Positions 4,924-12,574 of a stretch of 64,000 bases of DNA are shown piece by piece. The notes beneath the pieces were generated by a model, which did no database searches, was not told where the DNA came from, and saw only the letters and a list, made by a program, of their open reading frames with translations. The position numbers and the translations under genes are program-made. The DNA lies in contig NZ_JAAGLV010000008.1 of assembly GCF_010548305.1 (NCBI RefSeq), forward strand, positions 1 to 64,000, read 5' to 3'. The DNA is from Streptomyces sp. SID13031. Lineage in GTDB: Bacteria > Actinomycetota > Actinomycetes > Propionibacteriales > Kribbellaceae. Numbering within the stretch: position 1 is the stretch's first letter; every line of letters begins with the position of its first letter.

Positions 4924-5163
4924 TTGCCGCAGCCGGAAACACCCGTCGTGCCCTCAATCCTGGCCCTCGAGGCAGCCGGCTTTCAGGTCGAACAAATAGG
5001 CGAGGACCTTCTGCGGGCGGCGTCCCCGACAGGACGATACGTCGCTGCCGACCCGCTCGAACTCCTTGGAATGATCAAACTGATCGAGGTTCGCGGCTGG
5101 TCTTGGCAAGCCACAGACAGCCAAATCGACTCCGTACTGGAACGGTTCGGCTGGACAGGCTGA
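4924..5163 (+). CDS. Small hypothetical protein
   Basis: A 79-residue protein with balanced composition and third-position GC bias. The core contains a GRYVAADPLELLGMIKLIEV stretch followed by a helical SQIDSVLERFGW tail. I do not recognise the family. The TTG at 4924 or a GTG near 4948 could start it; neither has a strong ribosome site. It lies downstream of, and convergent with, the SARP regulator gene. Confidence 0.5.
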   Translation: MPQPETPVVPSILALEAAGFQVEQIGEDLLRAASPTGRYVAADPLELLGMIKLIEVRGWSWQATDSQIDSVLERFGWTG

Positions 5164-5266: not shown

Positions 5267-6031
5267 TCAGCCTGAGCCGAGCGGCACCTCGCCGCGGCGG
5301 GGCGAGTGCCGAGCCAGCAACTCCTGGAAGCCGACCGCGGGCGTGAGGCGCAGTTCGTCCCAAAGCAGCTCACAATACCGTCGGAAGTCTCGGTGCGCCG
5401 CGGCGTAGTTCCCCTCCCCGAGTTCGGCGGCAATCAGCGCGTAGTGTGCTGATTCGCGTAGCGGTTCGGCCGCAATCGAGGCTAGCGCCGCCTGGACTGC
5501 CAGGCCGTATCGGCCGTCAGCCAGCAGCCGGGAGGAGAGCGCTTCGAGGGCGTGCAAGCGAGTCTGGCGGACCCGCTCGCGTTCCAGGATCAGCCATTCC
5601 TCGTCCCAGCCGGGCAGTAGATCGAGGGTGAGCGGGTCGAGGCGCTCGTCGTCCCTCTCTAACTGCTCTTCTTGCCTGAGCAACCGTTCTGCCTGTGCCA
5701 GGCTCTCGTGCACGTCGACCCGGACGAGTGGGCCGAGCCGGACCTGGTCGTGCGCCGCGCTGACCAGCCAGCGGTCGACCTGCCGGATCCGCCATAGCGC
5801 GGTACGTAGGTTGCCTTGGGCTCTCTTTGCCGGGCTAGCCGCCCACACCCGCTCGGCCAACGCAGCCCGGGACTGCGGCAGGCGAGGCCGCCCGACTATG
5901 CAGAGCCCTACCAGCACCCGCTGGGCGTTGGTAGGGAGGAAGACTTCGGCGTTATCCACCATGACCGCGAAGGTGCCCAGTAGAAGGATGCGCGGCGGCG
6001 CGCGGGTTCCAATCTTCCGGGAATCGGACAT
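5267..6031 (-). CDS. SARP-type transcriptional regulator (OmpR-like HTH plus BTAD)
   Basis: A 254-residue regulator. The first 95 residues have the winged-helix pattern of AfsR/SARP proteins (ILLLGTFAVMVD, then ALAERVW and NLRTALWRIRQ). Residues about 98-245 are the bacterial transcriptional activator domain, including LLPGWDEEWLILERERVRQ, and end LWDELRLTPAVGF. SARPs bind short repeats near the -35 box and recruit RNA polymerase. The ATG at 6031 is preferred because GGGGGC precedes it; an in-frame TTG at 6043 is possible. It is transcribed away from the five-gene module at 6.1-12.6 kb and is its likely activator. Confidence 0.85.
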   Translation of the reverse strand: MSDSRKIGTRAPPRILLLGTFAVMVDNAEVFLPTNAQRVLVGLCIVGRPRLPQSRAALAERVWAASPAKRAQGNLRTALWRIRQVDRWLVSAAHDQVRLGPLVRVDVHESLAQAERLLRQEEQLERDDERLDPLTLDLLPGWDEEWLILERERVRQTRLHALEALSSRLLADGRYGLAVQAALASIAAEPLRESAHYALIAAELGEGNYAAAHRDFRRYCELLWDELRLTPAVGFQELLARHSPRRGEVPLGSG

Positions 6032-6110
6032 GGTGCCCCCCAAAAAATGCGCCTTATCGCCGAATGCCGATCCTCACTATGATCGATCCGCGTGTACCTA
6101 TGCGTCTACG

Positions 6111-6140
6111 CCCCGTCAATGCCGATACATGCCGTTGACG
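6111..6140. promoter_or_regulatory. Inverted CGTCAA/TTGACG element upstream of the module
   Basis: CCCCGTCAA at 6111-6119 and CCGTTGACG at 6132-6140 are inverted copies of the same core in the SARP/module intergenic region. TTGACG also matches a -35 box. A third copy lies at 6375-6388. They may be regulator sites; no binding is shown. Confidence 0.35.
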
Positions 6141-6161
6141 CCCGGGTACGAACGTCTTGGC

Positions 6162-6350
6162 ATGACGGCGTACCCCTGGCGAGTGATCGTGGTTCGGGCC
6201 TGGCCGGACAACGGGCAGCTGCGGGCCCGGATCCTGGTTGAGGGCGACGGCCAGCGCACCTGGGTCGTCGTCGGCCTGCCCGAAGTGGTCGAGCGGCTCC
6301 GTCAGCTCCTGGCAGAGATCGAACTGCAGGCGGACGAGGGCGGCACCTGA
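6162..6350 (+). CDS. Small basic/acidic protein, first gene of the module
   Basis: A 62-residue protein (starting MTAYPWRVIVVRAW) with two predicted beta strands, a QRTWVVVG strand and a C-terminal helix rich in leucine and glutamate. I do not recognise it. An in-frame ATG at 6129 would add 11 residues; the one at 6162 is chosen because the conserved-looking part starts there. It lies between the divergent SARP gene and the glycine-zipper gene, and probably belongs to the same transcription unit. Confidence 0.5.
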   Translation: MTAYPWRVIVVRAWPDNGQLRARILVEGDGQRTWVVVGLPEVVERLRQLLAEIELQADEGGT

Positions 6351-6374
6351 ACGGGTGAAACGCCACCGGCTACA

Positions 6375-6388
6375 CCCCGTTGACGGGG
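6375..6388. promoter_or_regulatory. CCCCGTTGACGGGG palindromic element
   Basis: A 14-base near-palindrome (CCCCGT, TG, ACGGGG) in the 111-base gap before the glycine-zipper gene. It shares TTGACGGGG with the inverted element at 6111-6119. It could be a regulator site or a small hairpin. Confidence 0.35.
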
Positions 6389-6461
6389 CGAGGGACGCCA
6401 GAAAGACGGTGAGCCGGAACAGTGGCCTGCGTCAAGGCCCGGCCGGAGGATGTGATGTCCC

Positions 6462-7187
6462 GTGACCTCTTACCCGCTCGTCGAGGACACCTGGACCGAC
6501 GTGCTACGCCGGACTCTGCACGAGTCCTACGCGGACGCCGGCGACGAGGAACTGGAGGAAGCCCTGGCCGGGATGCTCGACACGATGAGCCCTGCCGAGT
6601 CCTTCAACTTCTCGCAGGCACTGAACCAGATCGGACGCAGCACCGGACGCGTCCTCTCCGATCCGACGGTCGCGTCGATCTCGCGACAGGCGCTACCAGT
6701 GGCCGGCGGTGCGCTCGGCACCGTCATCGGCGGCCCGGCAGGCACCGCAATCGGCGGTCAACTCGGCACCCGGGCGGCCGCGGCGCTACCGGCATCAGCC
6801 CGGCCCAGTCCCACCGGTGTTCCCCCTGCCTTCGGCCGGGCAGCTGGGTCGCCAGTGGCCGGGGGGTCCGACGCCGCGCTCCAGGCATTGGTGCTCTCCC
6901 AGCAGCCCCAGTTGCTGCAGAGCCTGCTCGCCGCAGCTCTCGGCGGGCACGGCCAGCCGCAGGTGGCCGGAGTCCCGGTGGCGAAGATGCTCGGCATGTT
7001 CAGCGAGGTGATCGGCCAGGCCGCCGCCGACGCCGACGAATTGCTGTACCTCGAGCAGGGCGACCCGGACGCGGAGAGCGGTGGCGAGCCGGTCGAGCCG
7101 GCCCGTTCCCTGTACACCGCGCTGCTGGACGCCGACAACCTCGAACTGGCCGAGGCCTTCGACGACCGTGAGGAGGACTTCGCATGA
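6462..7187 (+). CDS. Glycine-zipper hypothetical protein
   Basis: A 241-residue protein with no family I recognise. Residues 81-102 form a glycine zipper (GG spaced every three to four residues), as in helices that pack tightly in membranes or pore-forming proteins. The rest is helical: an acidic N-terminal helix bundle (residues 10-45), a Pro/Ala linker (108-130), a Gln/Leu-rich helix (136-160) and an acidic C-terminus. There is no signal peptide. It starts at GTG 6462; a GGAGG is 14 bases upstream, which is long. It overlaps the next gene by ATGA, so translation is probably coupled. Confidence 0.6.
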   Translation: MTSYPLVEDTWTDVLRRTLHESYADAGDEELEEALAGMLDTMSPAESFNFSQALNQIGRSTGRVLSDPTVASISRQALPVAGGALGTVIGGPAGTAIGGQLGTRAAAALPASARPSPTGVPPAFGRAAGSPVAGGSDAALQALVLSQQPQLLQSLLAAALGGHGQPQVAGVPVAKMLGMFSEVIGQAAADADELLYLEQGDPDAESGGEPVEPARSLYTALLDADNLELAEAFDDREEDFA

Positions 7188-7645
7188 CCGCCACCGAACT
7201 CGACGAGGTGACTGCACTGCTGGAACACGTGCTGCCCGACCCGGCAGGTTTCGCCCAGCGGTTGCTGGATCAGGTCCTGACACAGTTCTCCAGCGTCCTG
7301 GACCAGGCCGGCACTACGCCGTTCCCATCCCCGCCCGGCACTTACCGGACGGCGAACACCGTCGCGGGGGAGCCCGTGGCGACCGACGCACCTGGGCCCT
7401 CCCCGCGCGACCCGCGCCTCCTGCTGGAAGCTGCGCTCGGCGCCTGCGACTGCTGGGGAACCCGATCCGACTGTCCGGCGTGCGCCGGCCAGGGCTCGTC
7501 GGGGTGGGCCGAGCCCGACCCGGACCTCTTCCGGGAGTTCATCGGACCCGCCGCCGCTCGGATGGCCCCGGCCACCGCTCCCGCTCCTGACGGCCCGACC
7601 ACTGAGGACAACCACGACGACGAAGGGAACGACGGGGATGACTAG
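7184..7645 (+). CDS. Cysteine-cluster protein with J-protein-like zinc motif
   Basis: A 153-residue protein. Residues 85-105 contain C88-x-C90 and C97-P-A-C100-A-G-Q-G, the CxxCxGxG pattern of DnaJ zinc fingers, which suggests one bound zinc and a protein-binding role. The N-terminal 40 residues are helical; the C-terminus is an acidic tail of Asp, Asn and Glu. The start overlaps the upstream stop (ATGA) and the end overlaps the next gene by eight bases. No enzymatic signature is seen. An adaptor or assembly factor for the large terminal protein is a reasonable guess. Confidence 0.6.
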   Translation: MTATELDEVTALLEHVLPDPAGFAQRLLDQVLTQFSSVLDQAGTTPFPSPPGTYRTANTVAGEPVATDAPGPSPRDPRLLLEAALGACDCWGTRSDCPACAGQGSSGWAEPDPDLFREFIGPAAARMAPATAPAPDGPTTEDNHDDEGNDGDD

Positions 7646-8477
7646 CTGGCCCGACGACTACGACTCCGAGGCGTACTACGACACCGAGGACTACGACACC
7701 GAGGACTACGACAGCGGGGACTACGACAGCGAGGCCACCCGCGCGGATGCCCTTCGCAAGCGCGAGGCCGAGGCTCGGCGGATCGTGGCCCTCCGTCAGA
7801 AGTCGCAGCGCCGGCCAGGCGTCCGAGCGCCTGTGTCCCGCCGGGTGCCTGCGTCCCGCCGGGCGACCCCGGCCACGGCGGTCGCCGCGGTCCGCAACCT
7901 GGATCTGGAGACCAAGGTCGGGCAGGACTCGCTGCGCCGGGGTATCGAGCAGGCGAACGCGCGCTCCGCGCGGGCCCGGCTGACGGCGATGGCGAGTCTG
8001 GGCGTCGACCAGGCCCTGGACACGTTCGGCGAGAAGTTGAAGGAACACGAATTTGTCCGGGCCGGCCTGCGGCTCGCCCCGCTGGCCCTCCTGGGAAAAC
8101 AGCACACGAAACCCGGCGCGGCGGGGTGGCTGCTCTCTCCGCAGGTAATCGGCGTAGCCAGCGTGGCCGGCATCGTAGCCGCCGGCCATTTCTTCAAGCC
8201 CGGCGCTTCCGTCTCGCAGATTGACCTTACCCCGCGCAAGATCTCAGCAGCCGGAGCCGCCGGTCCCACCGCTGGCAAATTCAAGCCCCGGATTAAGGAC
8301 ACAAGCGGCAACCTACTCAACCTGAAGCCGTTCGCGTACGACTCGGACGACGACAAGGCGCTGGTGGTGGAGGACGACGGCACTTTCACAGTGCCGCCGG
8401 GCACATCTGCCAAGACCGTGACCGTGACCGTCACCGTCGGCGACCGCGTCGAGCCCTTCGTCATCGCGATCGAGTAG
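7638..8477 (+). CDS. Acidic D/Y-repeat protein with hydrophobic segment
   Basis: A 279-residue protein in three parts. Residues 6-32 are a tandem Asp-Tyr repeat (units like DTEDY and DSGDY). Residues 36-75 are strongly basic. A hydrophobic stretch at about 164-186 (LLSPQVIGVASVAGIVAAGH) may insert in or lie on a membrane. The last 80 residues look like beta strands ending in TVTVTVTVGDRVEPFVIAIE. I do not recognise a family. The gene overlaps its upstream neighbour by eight bases and is followed after 11 bases by the large protease-phospholipase gene. Confidence 0.6.
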   Translation: MTSWPDDYDSEAYYDTEDYDTEDYDSGDYDSEATRADALRKREAEARRIVALRQKSQRRPGVRAPVSRRVPASRRATPATAVAAVRNLDLETKVGQDSLRRGIEQANARSARARLTAMASLGVDQALDTFGEKLKEHEFVRAGLRLAPLALLGKQHTKPGAAGWLLSPQVIGVASVAGIVAAGHFFKPGASVSQIDLTPRKISAAGAAGPTAGKFKPRIKDTSGNLLNLKPFAYDSDDDKALVVEDDGTFTVPPGTSAKTVTVTVTVGDRVEPFVIAIE

Positions 8478-8488
8478 CGGCCGGACGA

Positions 8489-11400
8489 ATGGATCCGGCG
8501 CTCCGAGAATTGCTTCGGGATCGGTCGGACCCGGATCGGGTGATCGAGGCGATCATCCGGCTCGACCGGCCAGGGATCGAGATTCCCGGGGTGCGGCAGG
8601 TAGCGCATTTCGGCCCGATCGCCACCTGCCGGCTACGGGCCTGCGACGTGACCGCCGTGCACGCCCACCCCGACGTGAGGAGCCTCAAGGCGGCCCGCGG
8701 TCTGAGCCCCGGCCATGTCCCGCGCGGGAGTGTTGAAGATTCCATGGTCAAGGGGGAGAGCCGGGCGGCCGACGTCCGGCGGCCAGCGGGGGCGACCGTC
8801 ACCGGCGCGGGTGTCGTGGTGGGCGTCGTGGACTGGGGTGTGGACGTGGGCTCGTCTGCGTTACGGCATGCCTCCGGCGCCACCCGGTTCCTGGCCGTTT
8901 GGGATCAGCGCGACCTCGCACGGGGCCGGCGGGCACAGCCGTACGGCTACGGCGCGGTGCACGACCGGGCCGGGATCGACCGGGCGCTGCGTAGCGATCA
9001 CCCGTATGCTGCCCTCGGCCTCCACCCATCGGTCGCCGACGGCGGCGGCAACGGCGCGCACGGCGCCCACGTGATCGACATCGCGGCTGGCAACGGCCGG
9101 GCCGCCGGGCCGGTCGGCGTCGCCCCGGAGGCGGACCTGGTGTTCGTGCACCTTGCCGACCGCGGCACCGGCGGGCTGGCCACTCTGGGCGATTCCGTGC
9201 GGTTGCTCGAGGCCGTCGATTTCGTCCGCCGTGCAGCCGGTCCGAGGCCCTGGGTGGTGAACACCAGCATGGGCCGCGAGGGCGGACCGCACGACGGCTG
9301 CACGTTAGTCGAGCAGGCGTTCGGGGAACTCCTCAACGCGGCGCCAGGCCGGTTCATCGTGCAGAGCGCGGGCAACTACTACGGCGCCCGCACGCACGCA
9401 CACGGTGTCGTCCATGCAGGCGAGTCCTGCTCGCTGACGTTCGTGACCGAGCCGGGGGATCTGACGCCCAACGAACTGGAGATCTGGTACGGCGGGGACG
9501 ACGAGTTCGTGGTCCGCATCGAGCCTCCCGGCGCGCGGCCCGGCGACCCGATGCGGGCCGTCGAGCTCGGCGGATGGGCCGACATCGTCGCCGCCGGGCA
9601 GGTGGTCGGGCGGATCTACCACCGGGCTCACGACCCGAACAACGGTGACCACCACATCGACGCGTTCCTGGAACCAATCGAGGGCGCTTGGACGGTCACT
9701 CTGCAGGCGCGGCGTACGGATAGCGGGCGGTTCGACGCCTGGCTGGAGCGTGACGACGCCCGCCCGCACACCCAGGCCCGATTCGCCCCCGGCACGAGCT
9801 CGCCGAGGTCGACCATCGGCACGATAGCGAACGGCCGACTGCCCCTGGTGGTCGGTGCCTATGACGCGCACGACCCCGACCGGCCGCCGGCCCGGTTCTC
9901 CAGTGCCGGCCCGACCCGTGACGGCCGGTCGAAGCCCGACCTTGCTGCGCCGGGGGTCGACGTGCTCGCGGCCCGGTCCACCCCGGCCGGTGAACCCCGT
10001 CCCGTTTCTGGCCTGGTCCGGAAGTCCGGCACCAGCATGGCCGCCCCGCACGTGACCGGCGCCGTCGCTCTCTGCCTCGAAGCCAGCCTGCACGCCGGCC
10101 GTCCGCTGGCCGCACGCGCGGTCCGCGACCTCCTGCTCGCCACCACCGACCCCATCGTCGGTATCGACCCCGAATGCCGCCTGGGGCGCGGGTACCTCGA
10201 CATCGCCCGGCTGCTCGACCACATCCCGAAGGAGCCAATCATGGACGACGACAGCAGCATCGTGCTACGTGCCCCAGGGATCGCATACCGCGAGTGCATG
10301 TACCGGCCGAACGGCGCTCTGGCCCGCCGGATCGGTGAACGGTACGAGGTGCTCGCCCGACCCGGGGAGCGGGTCTCCCAGACACCTCGCAACGGCGATC
10401 TCGTGCTTGAGATCACCTTCGGGCAGTTGCGTTCGGGCCGCTCCATCGAGGTGCGCGATGCCGAACCCGACACGCCGTCCGTCGGCCGAACGCTGACCCC
10501 GGGCCGACTCCTGCTGCGCCCAACCGACGACCTGGAGCTTCCGGCTGAGGACACTCCCCAACGGGCGCCCGCCCAGGTGAAGGCTCAGGACCGGTGGACG
10601 AAGTTGTTCGGCACGGACCTGCTGCTCAAGGACGTCATCATTCGCGACTATAGGGTCGTGCCCTCGAAGGCGGTTCTCGGCGAGAAGTACAACGGTTGGA
10701 CGAATTCCAGCACCCGGATCTACATACCCGAGACCGCGACCACACCGGAATACGCCCTGGACGTGATCCTGCGCCACGAGGCGGTCCACATATATCAGTT
10801 CTCAATTGTCGGGCGGCCCACTAGATATCAACAGATGGTGGCGTACGAACTGATGGCTTACCGCAAGACGCTCCTGGACCTGAACACCCAGTACGGGCAG
10901 CTCAACAAGTTGGCCCGGCGCAACCCGGCCCAGAAGGAGCAGCTGAACTGGACCGACTCTCGCCTGGATGGGGTGGAGGAGACCATTGCGCTGCTGCAGA
11001 AGGCCGATCAAGAGAACAGTTCGGAGAAGGTGGAGGCCGAGCGTGAGCGCGGCTACAAGGTCTTCCTGATCGAGAACAAACTTCTGCCTCCACACAAGAA
11101 ACTGATCGACCTCTACGTACCGTCGAAGAATGACCGCAACCCCGCGGCTATCGAATCGGAGGAGTTCGCGGACGGCTCGGGCGATGACGCCGAGTTCGCC
11201 GGGCCGGAGCACAAACTGATCGGGGACGCCGCCTCGAAGGGATTGCTCTCGGACATCCCGTACGACAACCCGCCCCAGCAGTTGACATTCGGCGACATGA
11301 TCAGCCTGGCCGGCGACTACTTCGAGACCTACGACGAGATGAACCGTCTAGGCGAGACTCCGGCGGGGCGGGCGGAGCTGGCCTGGGCCCGCTGGCGCGC

Positions 11401-12574
11401 CCTGAACCTTAAGGAGCAGGGGATTCCCGAGCCGAGGTTCGACCCGAAGCTCGACGCGAACATCCACCAGACGGTGGCTGACCGGTACTACGACCTGGCG
11501 GCCCACAACCTGACCCATTTCAACACCGGCGGCACGGCCATGTCGGAATACTTCCGGTGGCACGGCCGCGCTCTCGCCACCGCCCTCGAGGCCGGTCAGA
11601 CGTCCGACCCGGCGATCTGGCAGCGAGCCGTGACCCAGGAGGCGTTCAGCGACCACTTCCTGACTGACATGTTCGCCGGCGGCCACGTGCGCACCCCACG
11701 CTTCGAGATCAAGGCCTGGCATCGCGAGCACTTCGACGGCAGCGGAGAGAGGTTCGTGGAATACCTGGCGAAGAACCTGTTCCACCAACTGAGCGCGCGC
11801 GACAAGCTACCCCTTCCCTCACTGCTCGGACTAATCGAACGATGGCTGATCCGGCGTCGGATCCGGAAGATGGGCGGCGCGGCCCTGCGGTCATTCTCCC
11901 TCGGCGACATCGTGTCCCTCGCCCTGCATGACCACGACAACAAGGGCCTCGGGGTGATATCCGACGCCGATCCGTCGGGGCGCCGCGTTCCCGGGGGTTA
12001 TCAGTGGAAGGTTGTCGGGGACGGCCACCTCCTGAAGCCGAAGCTGGGAGAGCCGACCCTGATCATGGTCAAGGCTGCCGTGACATCGTCGCTGCGCGAT
12101 CTGGACCGGGTCCGGGCGGCTGGCGCCCATCTGCCCCGTGCCCCGGTCTCGTTGTCAGAGAAGACCACCCGGGTGCGGGCCGCGCTCAGCCCGGAAGGCT
12201 TCTCAGCTCGGCGCTTCATCCCGCGGGAGGATATGTCGCCGTCATCCCCGAACGAACGCCTCAACGGAAAGCTGGAATGGCGCTGGGGCCAACTCGGGGA
12301 AGCGGCCTACCAGGCGGTGGACGAGGCTGTGAAGGGCACCGTCGCCGCCGAGATCGCCGAGGTCGCGGATGAAGTGAAGGGTCCTCCACCCGGCGTGCGG
12401 GAATCTCTACGCGTCATCGCCGCTCAACTTCGCCTGGAAGGCATTCTCGCCATCGAGGCCGCCATCGGTACCAAGGCCGGTCAACGCCCGAAGCCCGCGC
12501 AAAGGCGGACCTCCCGTACCCCCGTCGGTGGCGTTGGCCTTCCGACGCCGATCCAGGGCTCGGAGGGATCGTGA
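8489..12574 (+). CDS. S8 subtilase / HExxH metallopeptidase / zinc phospholipase C-like multidomain protein
   Basis: A 1361-residue protein with three enzyme-like parts. Residues about 105-575 are an S8 subtilase: Asp115 (VVDWG), His191 (HGAHV), the oxyanion Asn296 (QSAGN) and Ser516 (SGTSMAAP). A non-catalytic insert lies at about 305-440. Residues about 700-790 hold HEAVH (763-767) with Glu787 as a possible third zinc ligand. Residues about 930-1070 hold FGDMISLAGD and EAFSDHFLTD...GGH (1051-1066), matching the H-[FY]-x-T-D-x5-H pattern of zinc phospholipase C and P1 nuclease. There is no signal peptide. An in-frame ATG (Met585) at 10241 has AAGGAG six bases upstream, so the C-terminal half may also be made alone. 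Domain calls are by motif; substrates are unknown. Confidence 0.8.
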   Translation: MDPALRELLRDRSDPDRVIEAIIRLDRPGIEIPGVRQVAHFGPIATCRLRACDVTAVHAHPDVRSLKAARGLSPGHVPRGSVEDSMVKGESRAADVRRPAGATVTGAGVVVGVVDWGVDVGSSALRHASGATRFLAVWDQRDLARGRRAQPYGYGAVHDRAGIDRALRSDHPYAALGLHPSVADGGGNGAHGAHVIDIAAGNGRAAGPVGVAPEADLVFVHLADRGTGGLATLGDSVRLLEAVDFVRRAAGPRPWVVNTSMGREGGPHDGCTLVEQAFGELLNAAPGRFIVQSAGNYYGARTHAHGVVHAGESCSLTFVTEPGDLTPNELEIWYGGDDEFVVRIEPPGARPGDPMRAVELGGWADIVAAGQVVGRIYHRAHDPNNGDHHIDAFLEPIEGAWTVTLQARRTDSGRFDAWLERDDARPHTQARFAPGTSSPRSTIGTIANGRLPLVVGAYDAHDPDRPPARFSSAGPTRDGRSKPDLAAPGVDVLAARSTPAGEPRPVSGLVRKSGTSMAAPHVTGAVALCLEASLHAGRPLAARAVRDLLLATTDPIVGIDPECRLGRGYLDIARLLDHIPKEPIMDDDSSIVLRAPGIAYRECMYRPNGALARRIGERYEVLARPGERVSQTPRNGDLVLEITFGQLRSGRSIEVRDAEPDTPSVGRTLTPGRLLLRPTDDLELPAEDTPQRAPAQVKAQDRWTKLFGTDLLLKDVIIRDYRVVPSKAVLGEKYNGWTNSSTRIYIPETATTPEYALDVILRHEAVHIYQFSIVGRPTRYQQMVAYELMAYRKTLLDLNTQYGQLNKLARRNPAQKEQLNWTDSRLDGVEETIALLQKADQENSSEKVEAERERGYKVFLIENKLLPPHKKLIDLYVPSKNDRNPAAIESEEFADGSGDDAEFAGPEHKLIGDAASKGLLSDIPYDNPPQQLTFGDMISLAGDYFETYDEMNRLGETPAGRAELAWARWRALNLKEQGIPEPRFDPKLDANIHQTVADRYYDLAAHNLTHFNTGGTAMSEYFRWHGRALATALEAGQTSDPAIWQRAVTQEAFSDHFLTDMFAGGHVRTPRFEIKAWHREHFDGSGERFVEYLAKNLFHQLSARDKLPLPSLLGLIERWLIRRRIRKMGGAALRSFSLGDIVSLALHDHDNKGLGVISDADPSGRRVPGGYQWKVVGDGHLLKPKLGEPTLIMVKAAVTSSLRDLDRVRAAGAHLPRAPVSLSEKTTRVRAALSPEGFSARRFIPREDMSPSSPNERLNGKLEWRWGQLGEAAYQAVDEAVKGTVAAEIAEVADEVKGPPPGVRESLRVIAAQLRLEGILAIEAAIGTKAGQRPKPAQRRTSRTPVGGVGLPTPIQGSEGS
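10229..10243 (+). promoter_or_regulatory. Internal ribosome binding site and in-frame ATG inside the multidomain gene
   Basis: AAGGAG at 10229-10234 is followed six bases later by ATG at 10241, in frame with the large gene and exactly between the subtilase domain and the metallopeptidase/phospholipase-like half. The downstream start MDDDSSIVLRAPG looks like a native N-terminus. This suggests either a second product or a recent fusion of two genes. Confidence 0.6.

What the first reader, a model, noticed from the sequence alone, without database searches (positions are those of the whole stretch)
5267..12574. SARP-controlled module ending in a triple-enzyme protein: candidate undescribed system
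Seen: a SARP/BTAD gene divergent from five packed genes (62-aa protein, glycine-zipper protein, zinc-cluster protein, D/Y-repeat protein, 1361-aa enzyme), with ATGA and eight-base overlaps. Known: SARPs activate linked clusters; glycine zippers favour membrane packing; CxxCxGxG binds zinc in J proteins. Inferred: the small proteins are partners, adaptors or membrane delivery parts for the large protease-phospholipase-like protein, in antagonism or stress response. I recognise no named system with this set.
Basis: partly seen in the sequence, partly recalled or inferred. Interest (0 to 1): 0.8.

Follow-up and report, generated by a model that had tools for sequence, protein, structure and literature searches.

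The report
Protease module with swappable envelope-attacking enzymes
A compact gene set seen here beside a SARP switch turns out to be an uncatalogued module carried by bacteria of many phyla: three small, nameless proteins almost always lead into a large protease whose tail end is swapped between species for different enzymes, most often ones that act on cell walls or membranes.

Summary
The genes are real, and the module is real far beyond this genome. A scan of about 85,000 species genomes with the zinc-cluster motif gave 86 places. Outside Paracoccus, the glycine-zipper gene lies just upstream in 41 of 44 testable loci, the acidic-protein gene just downstream in 49 of 50, and a P0005-like protease follows in 41 of 42, all on one strand. 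The loci span at least nine phyla. The three small families have no usable Pfam or NCBIfam match (PHROGs and PADLOC were tried on the window proteins only). The protease is Csp-like, with its catalytic residues intact in 34 of 34. All 406 protease pairs align, but only 21 C-terminal pairs do. Tails and neighbours carry M23, VanY, lysozyme, muramidase, patatin, LCAT-like, PG-binding and OmpA domains. SARP is one of several interchangeable regulators. The window's HEAVH and PLC-like domains rest on motifs and distant relatives only. Best reading: a regulated module that delivers swappable envelope-attacking enzymes through a self-processing protease. Whether it acts on the producer (my lean) or on other cells is open. 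No published description was found in the searchable papers.

The parts
5267..6043 (-). SARP/BTAD regulator (P0006); more likely start is the ATG at 6029-6031
   Evidence: Pfam BTAD E 5.7e-11; module-SARP HMM built without the window hits it at 9.8e-41
6044..6161 (.). Divergent SARP / 62-aa intergenic region; AATGCCGAT twice (6063, 6118), no 11-bp SARP repeats
6162..6350 (+). 62-aa protein P0001, probable equivalent of the 71-119 aa family found only beside SARP genes
   Evidence: position; hhalign P 0.0096, 35% identity over 43 columns; family seen in 9 loci, all with SARP
6462..7187 (+). Glycine-zipper protein (GZ, P0002): helical, central Gly-rich hairpin about residues 68-107
   Evidence: family HMM built without the window: E 7.4e-27; Pseudomonadota-only HMM E 5.6e-19; AlphaFold2 helices, hairpin low confidence
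7184..7645 (+). Zn-cluster protein (ZN, P0003); conserved core about 7424-7543, ALGAC-x1-C-x-G-x4-C-x2-C-x-G-x-G (one residue shorter than the family's C-x2-C)
   Evidence: family HMM built without the window: E 5.4e-19; alignments
7638..8477 (+). Acidic D/Y-repeat protein (C3 position, P0004) with hydrophobic stretch 161-183 and C-terminal beta-like tail
   Evidence: C3 HMM E 0.0028 and 0.0071 from Pseudomonadota only, plus the conserved position
8489..12574 (+). Large protein P0005: prodomain-like N-terminus, Csp-like S8 protease, variable C-terminus
   Evidence: Pfam S8 1.4e-26; nearest solved structure CspB 4i0w E 2.8e-19 over residues 103-534
8489..8773 (+). Conserved N-terminal prodomain-like segment, residues 1-95 (MDPALxEL...)
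   Evidence: occupancy 0.97 in module proteases; no N-terminal hydrophobic segment in 40/40
8774..10219 (+). Subtilase with Csp-type insertion (about residues 305-440); D115, H191, N296, S516
   Evidence: catalytic residues invariant 34/34
10274..10558 (+). Semi-conserved 'GDVLLR' segment, residues 596-690
   Evidence: occupancy 0.77-0.88; motif in most module proteases
10556..11119 (+). HEAVH metallopeptidase-like domain (HExxH at 10775-10789)
   Evidence: 34% identical to a free-standing HEAEH protein of the same order (L010/L126, E 4e-15)
11129..12178 (+). PLC-like helical domain (AHNLTHF, WHG, DHFLTDMFAGGH, HDHDN)
   Evidence: His/Asp set invariant over 7 relatives, including one fused to eCIS_core; no Pfam or PDB match

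Best explanation
A regulated, polymorphic envelope-attack module. A switch gene (SARP here; a sigma-54 activator or response regulator elsewhere) turns on the operon. A Csp-like subtilase, held inactive by its own prodomain and made without a signal peptide, carries a swappable C-terminal cargo that is often a peptidoglycan- or lipid-acting enzyme (in this window a zinc-peptidase-like and a PLC-like domain). The glycine-zipper protein inserts into or permeabilises the cytoplasmic membrane. The zinc-cluster and acidic proteins dock, hold or chaperone the protease. On a trigger the protease self-cleaves and frees or activates the cargo, which breaks down the envelope. I lean to self-directed action (regulated lysis or altruistic death) because export signals, delivery apparatus and a constant immunity gene are all missing from the loci. 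Shown here: the conserved module, the intact protease residues, the polymorphic tails and the nature of several tails and neighbours. Inferred: membrane action of GZ, partner roles, self-cleavage, target, trigger.
For: Gene order conserved across phyla: GZ 41/44, C3 49/50, S8 41/42 (cross-phylum test). Protease triad 34/34. N-terminal halves align in 406/406 pairs, C-terminal parts in 21/406. Tails: M23, VanY, phage tail lysozyme, extensin-like, PG_binding_1, OmpA, patatin. Neighbours: muramidase+VanY, LCAT-like lipase, PAP2, PASTA. Csp kinship; CspB retains an inhibitory prodomain and is required for processing of the cortex hydrolase SleC (PMC3567191). No N-terminal hydrophobic segment in S8, GZ or ZN sets. 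Mixed-phylum protease tree, plasmid copies and absence from 37 other genomes of the genus suggest transfer.
Against: No experiment. Some tails are not envelope enzymes (amine oxidase, L112; weak metallo-beta-lactamase-like hit, L028) and several have no recognisable domain. The GZ family seldom passes a hydropathy cut for a transmembrane helix (5/50) and its model is weak (pTM 0.39, no PDB match). PG-binding and OmpA domains without signal peptides fit delivery into other cells as well. The PLC-like assignment is motif-based only. P0004 is a marginal member of its family.
Confidence: 0.4

Rival explanations
1. An interbacterial antagonism system: the protease is the carrier of polymorphic effectors delivered into neighbouring cells by an unlinked or lysis-based route, the tails attacking the target's periplasm.
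For: Swappable envelope-acting tails on a constant carrier are the hallmark of polymorphic toxins; PG-binding, OmpA and lysozyme domains without signal peptides are as expected of cargo that enters a foreign periplasm; patchy, plasmid-borne, mixed-phylum distribution; a PLC-like relative is fused to the eCIS core domain (L128).
Against: No secretion, tail or spike gene recognised in the loci read, no constant small immunity gene, and no eCIS core domain found in the own genome (though its positive controls also stayed silent).
Confidence: 0.3
2. A developmental or housekeeping envelope-remodelling device, like Csp-SleC: the protease activates hydrolases to loosen the wall at a life-cycle step without killing.
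For: Nearest relatives are germination proteases; PASTA and PG-binding parts; SARP and response regulators are developmental-type controls.
Against: Patchy: 1 of 38 genomes of the genus and 1 of 396 of the phylum by Zn profile; found in bacteria with unlike life cycles; phospholipases and extra peptidases do not fit remodelling well.
Confidence: 0.2
3. Chance neighbours: the small genes are unrelated to the large enzyme.
For: The protease family also occurs without the module (Rhizobium, Agrobacterium, Paenibacillus, Sphingobium, Acaryochloris plasmids).
Against: Same order, strand and spacing in dozens of loci of many phyla.
Confidence: 0.01

Closest known systems
Csp germination proteases (CspB / CspBA) and their target SleC
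   Same: Csp-type subtilase with a long insertion and prodomain-like N-terminus (best PDB match 4i0w, E 2.8e-19; NCBIfam CspBA E 3.3e-23 for P0005, 1.4e-39 for the Pseudomonas protein); link to peptidoglycan hydrolysis
   Different: Outside endospores, mostly in non-spore-formers; hydrolase fused or adjacent and swappable; three extra conserved partner proteins; SARP or other switch
Polymorphic toxin systems (general)
   Same: Constant carrier region plus swappable C-terminal enzymes, many envelope-directed
   Different: Carrier is an active-looking protease with conserved small partners; no recognised secretion apparatus or constant immunity gene in the loci
eCIS cargo with the eCIS core (DUF4157) domain
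   Same: A distant relative of the PLC-like domain is fused to eCIS_core in L128
   Different: P0005 has no eCIS_core and no tail genes were recognised nearby
Multi-peptidase NTP-dependent conflict systems (PMC7159879)
   Same: Peptidases, PASTA/OmpA-type parts, patchy islands
   Different: No NTPase or EAD domain recognised here; that paper has no mention of SARP or BTAD and only one of subtilisin
SARP-controlled biosynthetic clusters
   Same: SARP gene divergent from the first gene
   Different: No biosynthetic gene among the five

Membership tests
Polymorphic toxin system | Conserved N-terminal part with non-homologous C-terminal enzymes | tested here: met
   406/406 versus 21/406 aligned pairs; tails
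Polymorphic toxin system | Cognate immunity gene next to the toxin | tested here: inconclusive
   Variable small genes (PASTA-type and others) lie just before the protease in 24 loci, none in the window; no function known
Polymorphic toxin system | Dedicated secretion route | tested here: inconclusive
   None seen in the loci read; no signal peptides by hydropathy; distant genes not surveyed
Csp protease | S8 triad with Csp-type insertion and prodomain | tested here: met
   (by sequence; no structure solved or modelled here)
Csp protease | NCBIfam CspBA cut-off | tested here: not met
   81.3 bits against a cut-off of 1250
Csp protease | Activates a peptidoglycan hydrolase by cleavage | not testable with these tools
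   needs biochemistry
eCIS | eCIS core domain or tail genes | tested here: not met
   no PF13699 in P0005; none in the own genome, but the control genomes were silent too
Zinc-dependent phospholipase C (PF00882) | Pfam match | tested here: not met
   no hit up to E 1 for P0005 or 0.1 for relatives
Zinc-dependent phospholipase C (PF00882) | Conserved His/Asp metal-ligand set and all-helical fold | tested here: inconclusive
   His/Asp set invariant in A5; fold model unusable, pLDDT 37
SARP regulator | BTAD domain above cut-off | tested here: met
   43.4 bits against 22.1
SARP regulator | 11-bp spaced direct repeats at target promoter | tested here: not met
   none in the window; present in the S. 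canus locus

The most novel reading that the evidence does not exclude
A so far undescribed class of bacterial conflict or programmed-lysis system, spread over at least nine phyla, in which a self-inhibited Csp-like protease works as a universal adaptor for interchangeable envelope-destroying enzymes, with three dedicated partner families and plug-in regulators.
Probability: 0.4. Interest if true: 0.85.

Novelty: new variant of a known kind. Interest (0 to 1): 0.72.

Why it matters
It names a recurring gene set that the annotation libraries searched here miss: three partner families without Pfam or NCBIfam models, found from actinomycetes to cyanobacteria, almost always leading to an active-looking protease with exchangeable tails. 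If it kills cells, it is a new class of lysis or warfare system and a source of envelope-attacking enzymes. It also extends the Csp protease fold, known from spore germination, to other biology.

Tried and rejected
First genome-contig scan with the C-terminal half found no relatives; that half is unique to this genome in its genus. SARP 11-bp repeats in the window promoter: none; the AATGCCGAT pair may be chance. PLC identity: no Pfam, no PDB match by single sequence or profile, single-sequence model useless. eCIS link: free-standing relatives of the HEAVH and PLC-like domains lie among ordinary-looking genes. GZ fold search: no match. Two motif hits (L039, L064) are unrelated Cys-rich proteins. 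An apparent P0001 match in the Rhizobium locus is out of frame with the annotated gene and was dropped. Empty-site comparison: flanking genes lie at different places in other genomes of the genus, so only the lack of DNA matches over about 4.7-13.0 kb can be stated. Literature searches found no description of the set; the library lacks many subscription papers.

Full report
Observation. SARP is at 5267-6043 (-). The + strand holds a 62-aa gene (6162-6350), glycine-zipper gene (6462-7187), Zn-cluster gene (7184-7645), D/Y gene (7638-8477) and 1361-aa gene (8489-12574), with the ATGA and 8-base overlaps. Pfam sees only BTAD and Peptidase_S8; NCBIfam, PHROGs and PADLOC add nothing for the small proteins. 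The genome is probably a Kribbella (my inference from the family and genome-size pattern; the tools name no organism).

From one genome to a module. The C-terminal half of the large protein is absent from 37 other genomes of the genus. The window has no DNA match in those genomes between about 4.7 and 13.0 kb, so it is an accessory island. The Zn-cluster protein, however, found relatives on plasmids of Gemmatirosa and Cupriavidus. There the same order appears: glycine-zipper, Zn-cluster, acidic protein, large subtilase 44-46% identical over residues 1-572 but with another C-terminus. A Streptomyces canus plasmid repeats the window's layout, divergent SARP included.

Breadth. A degenerate DNA pattern for LGACxxCxGx4CxxCxGxG matched 86 stretches in about 85,000 species genomes; 80 loci were read. 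Outside Paracoccus, where the tile was long enough, GZ is upstream in 41/44, C3 downstream in 49/50 and S8 downstream in 41/42, all on one strand. Loci come from Pseudomonadota, Cyanobacteriota, Bacteroidota, Myxococcota, Planctomycetota, Acidobacteriota, Chloroflexota and Actinomycetota (record titles), plus the Gemmatimonadota plasmid. Because those HMMs were trained on the same loci, I retrained on Pseudomonadota only: 22/23 (GZ) and 24/25 (C3) loci of other phyla were still found. With the window left out of training, P0002 scores 7.4e-27, P0003 5.4e-19, P0006 9.8e-41 and P0004 0.0028. P0001 is only weakly linked to the 71-119 aa family (P 0.0096), but that family occurs only beside SARPs, 9 of 9, as P0001 does. 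The pattern misses members with spacing changes, such as the window's own C-x1-C, so prevalence is a lower bound. A Zn-profile search hit 1 of 396 genomes of the phylum, this one.

Regulators are plug-in. Of 24 loci outside Paracoccus with enough upstream sequence, 8 have SARP, 5 a LuxR-type response regulator, 4 a sigma-54 activator, 2 only a small winged-helix-like protein and 5 none of these. The S. canus promoter has 11-bp direct repeats of SARP type (2 exact pairs, 0.4% of shuffles); the window does not.

The protease. P0005 is closest to the Csp germination proteases (PDB 4i0w over residues 103-534, E 2.8e-19) and NCBIfam CspBA (below cut-off). The 34 aligned module proteases keep D115, H191, N296 and S516; residues 1-560 are conserved and the rest is not. 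In CspB the prodomain stays bound and inhibits, a jellyroll insertion stiffens the fold, and activity is needed for germination with pro-SleC processing (PMC3567191). A 43-row tree mixes phyla; five relatives from loci without the module form one group, 100/99.

The tails. All 406 pairs of N-terminal halves align; only 21 C-terminal pairs align over half the shorter part, and the window's tail matches none. Tails hold PG_binding_1, OmpA, VanY, M23, phage tail lysozyme, extensin-like, patatin, amine oxidase and a weak beta-lactamase-like hit. Neighbours hold muramidase+VanY, LCAT-like lipase and PAP2; a small gene just upstream can carry PASTA repeats. Not one S8 (40), GZ or ZN protein shows an N-terminal hydrophobic segment.

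This window's tail. It has a semi-conserved GDVLLR-type segment, an HEAVH domain shared with a free-standing protein of the same order, and a PLC-like helical domain whose His/Asp set is invariant over seven relatives including an eCIS_core fusion. No Pfam or PDB match supports 'phospholipase', and the single-sequence model failed. 'Triple enzyme' is therefore likely but unproven.

GZ. The model of P0002 is helical: a confident N-terminal domain, a low-confidence Gly-rich hairpin and a C-terminal domain (pLDDT 70, pTM 0.39), with no solved-structure match. Membrane action is inference.

Mechanism and rivals. The data are best explained by a regulated module in which a self-inhibited protease carries interchangeable, mostly envelope-attacking cargo. 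I favour self-directed action (0.4) over delivery to other cells (0.3) and remodelling (0.2), because the loci lack export signals, apparatus and constant immunity; no experiment separates them.

Novelty. No paper found describes this set, within a library that lacks many subscription journals. Swappable effectors on a constant carrier are a known kind; the Csp-like carrier and three uncatalogued partners are new to the libraries searched.

Noticed in passing
L042, L046, L063, L079, L100, L109 and other Paracoccus loci (23): Paracoccus carries a variant: in those read far enough, a SARP-like TPR regulator divergent from a PAP2-domain gene, a very divergent S8-like gene and the Zn-cluster gene, without GZ or C3.
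   Followed up: partly
L032, L035 (Rhizobium and Agrobacterium plasmids): Protease relatives without the module lie next to phospholipase D-like genes, with caspase-family genes nearby: possibly a sister system.
   Followed up: partly
L030:6317-6349: Three 11-bp spaced direct repeats (GCGCTCACACC GCGGTCACGCA GCACTCACGCA) between SARP and module genes on the S. canus plasmid.
   Followed up: partly
L022 (Rhizobium leguminosarum plasmid p3): Free-standing relative of the PLC-like domain near a small hypothetical gene and a vWA gene.
   Followed up: no
L128:6693-9632: Protein with eCIS_core domain, PLC-like domain and beta-propeller with no obvious tail genes nearby.
   Followed up: no
window 4924-5163: 79-aa ORF upstream of the SARP gene, no Pfam match.
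   Followed up: partly
L112: Module protease in Streptomyces sp. NRRL S-87 ends in a complete amine oxidase domain, an unusual cargo.
   Followed up: no
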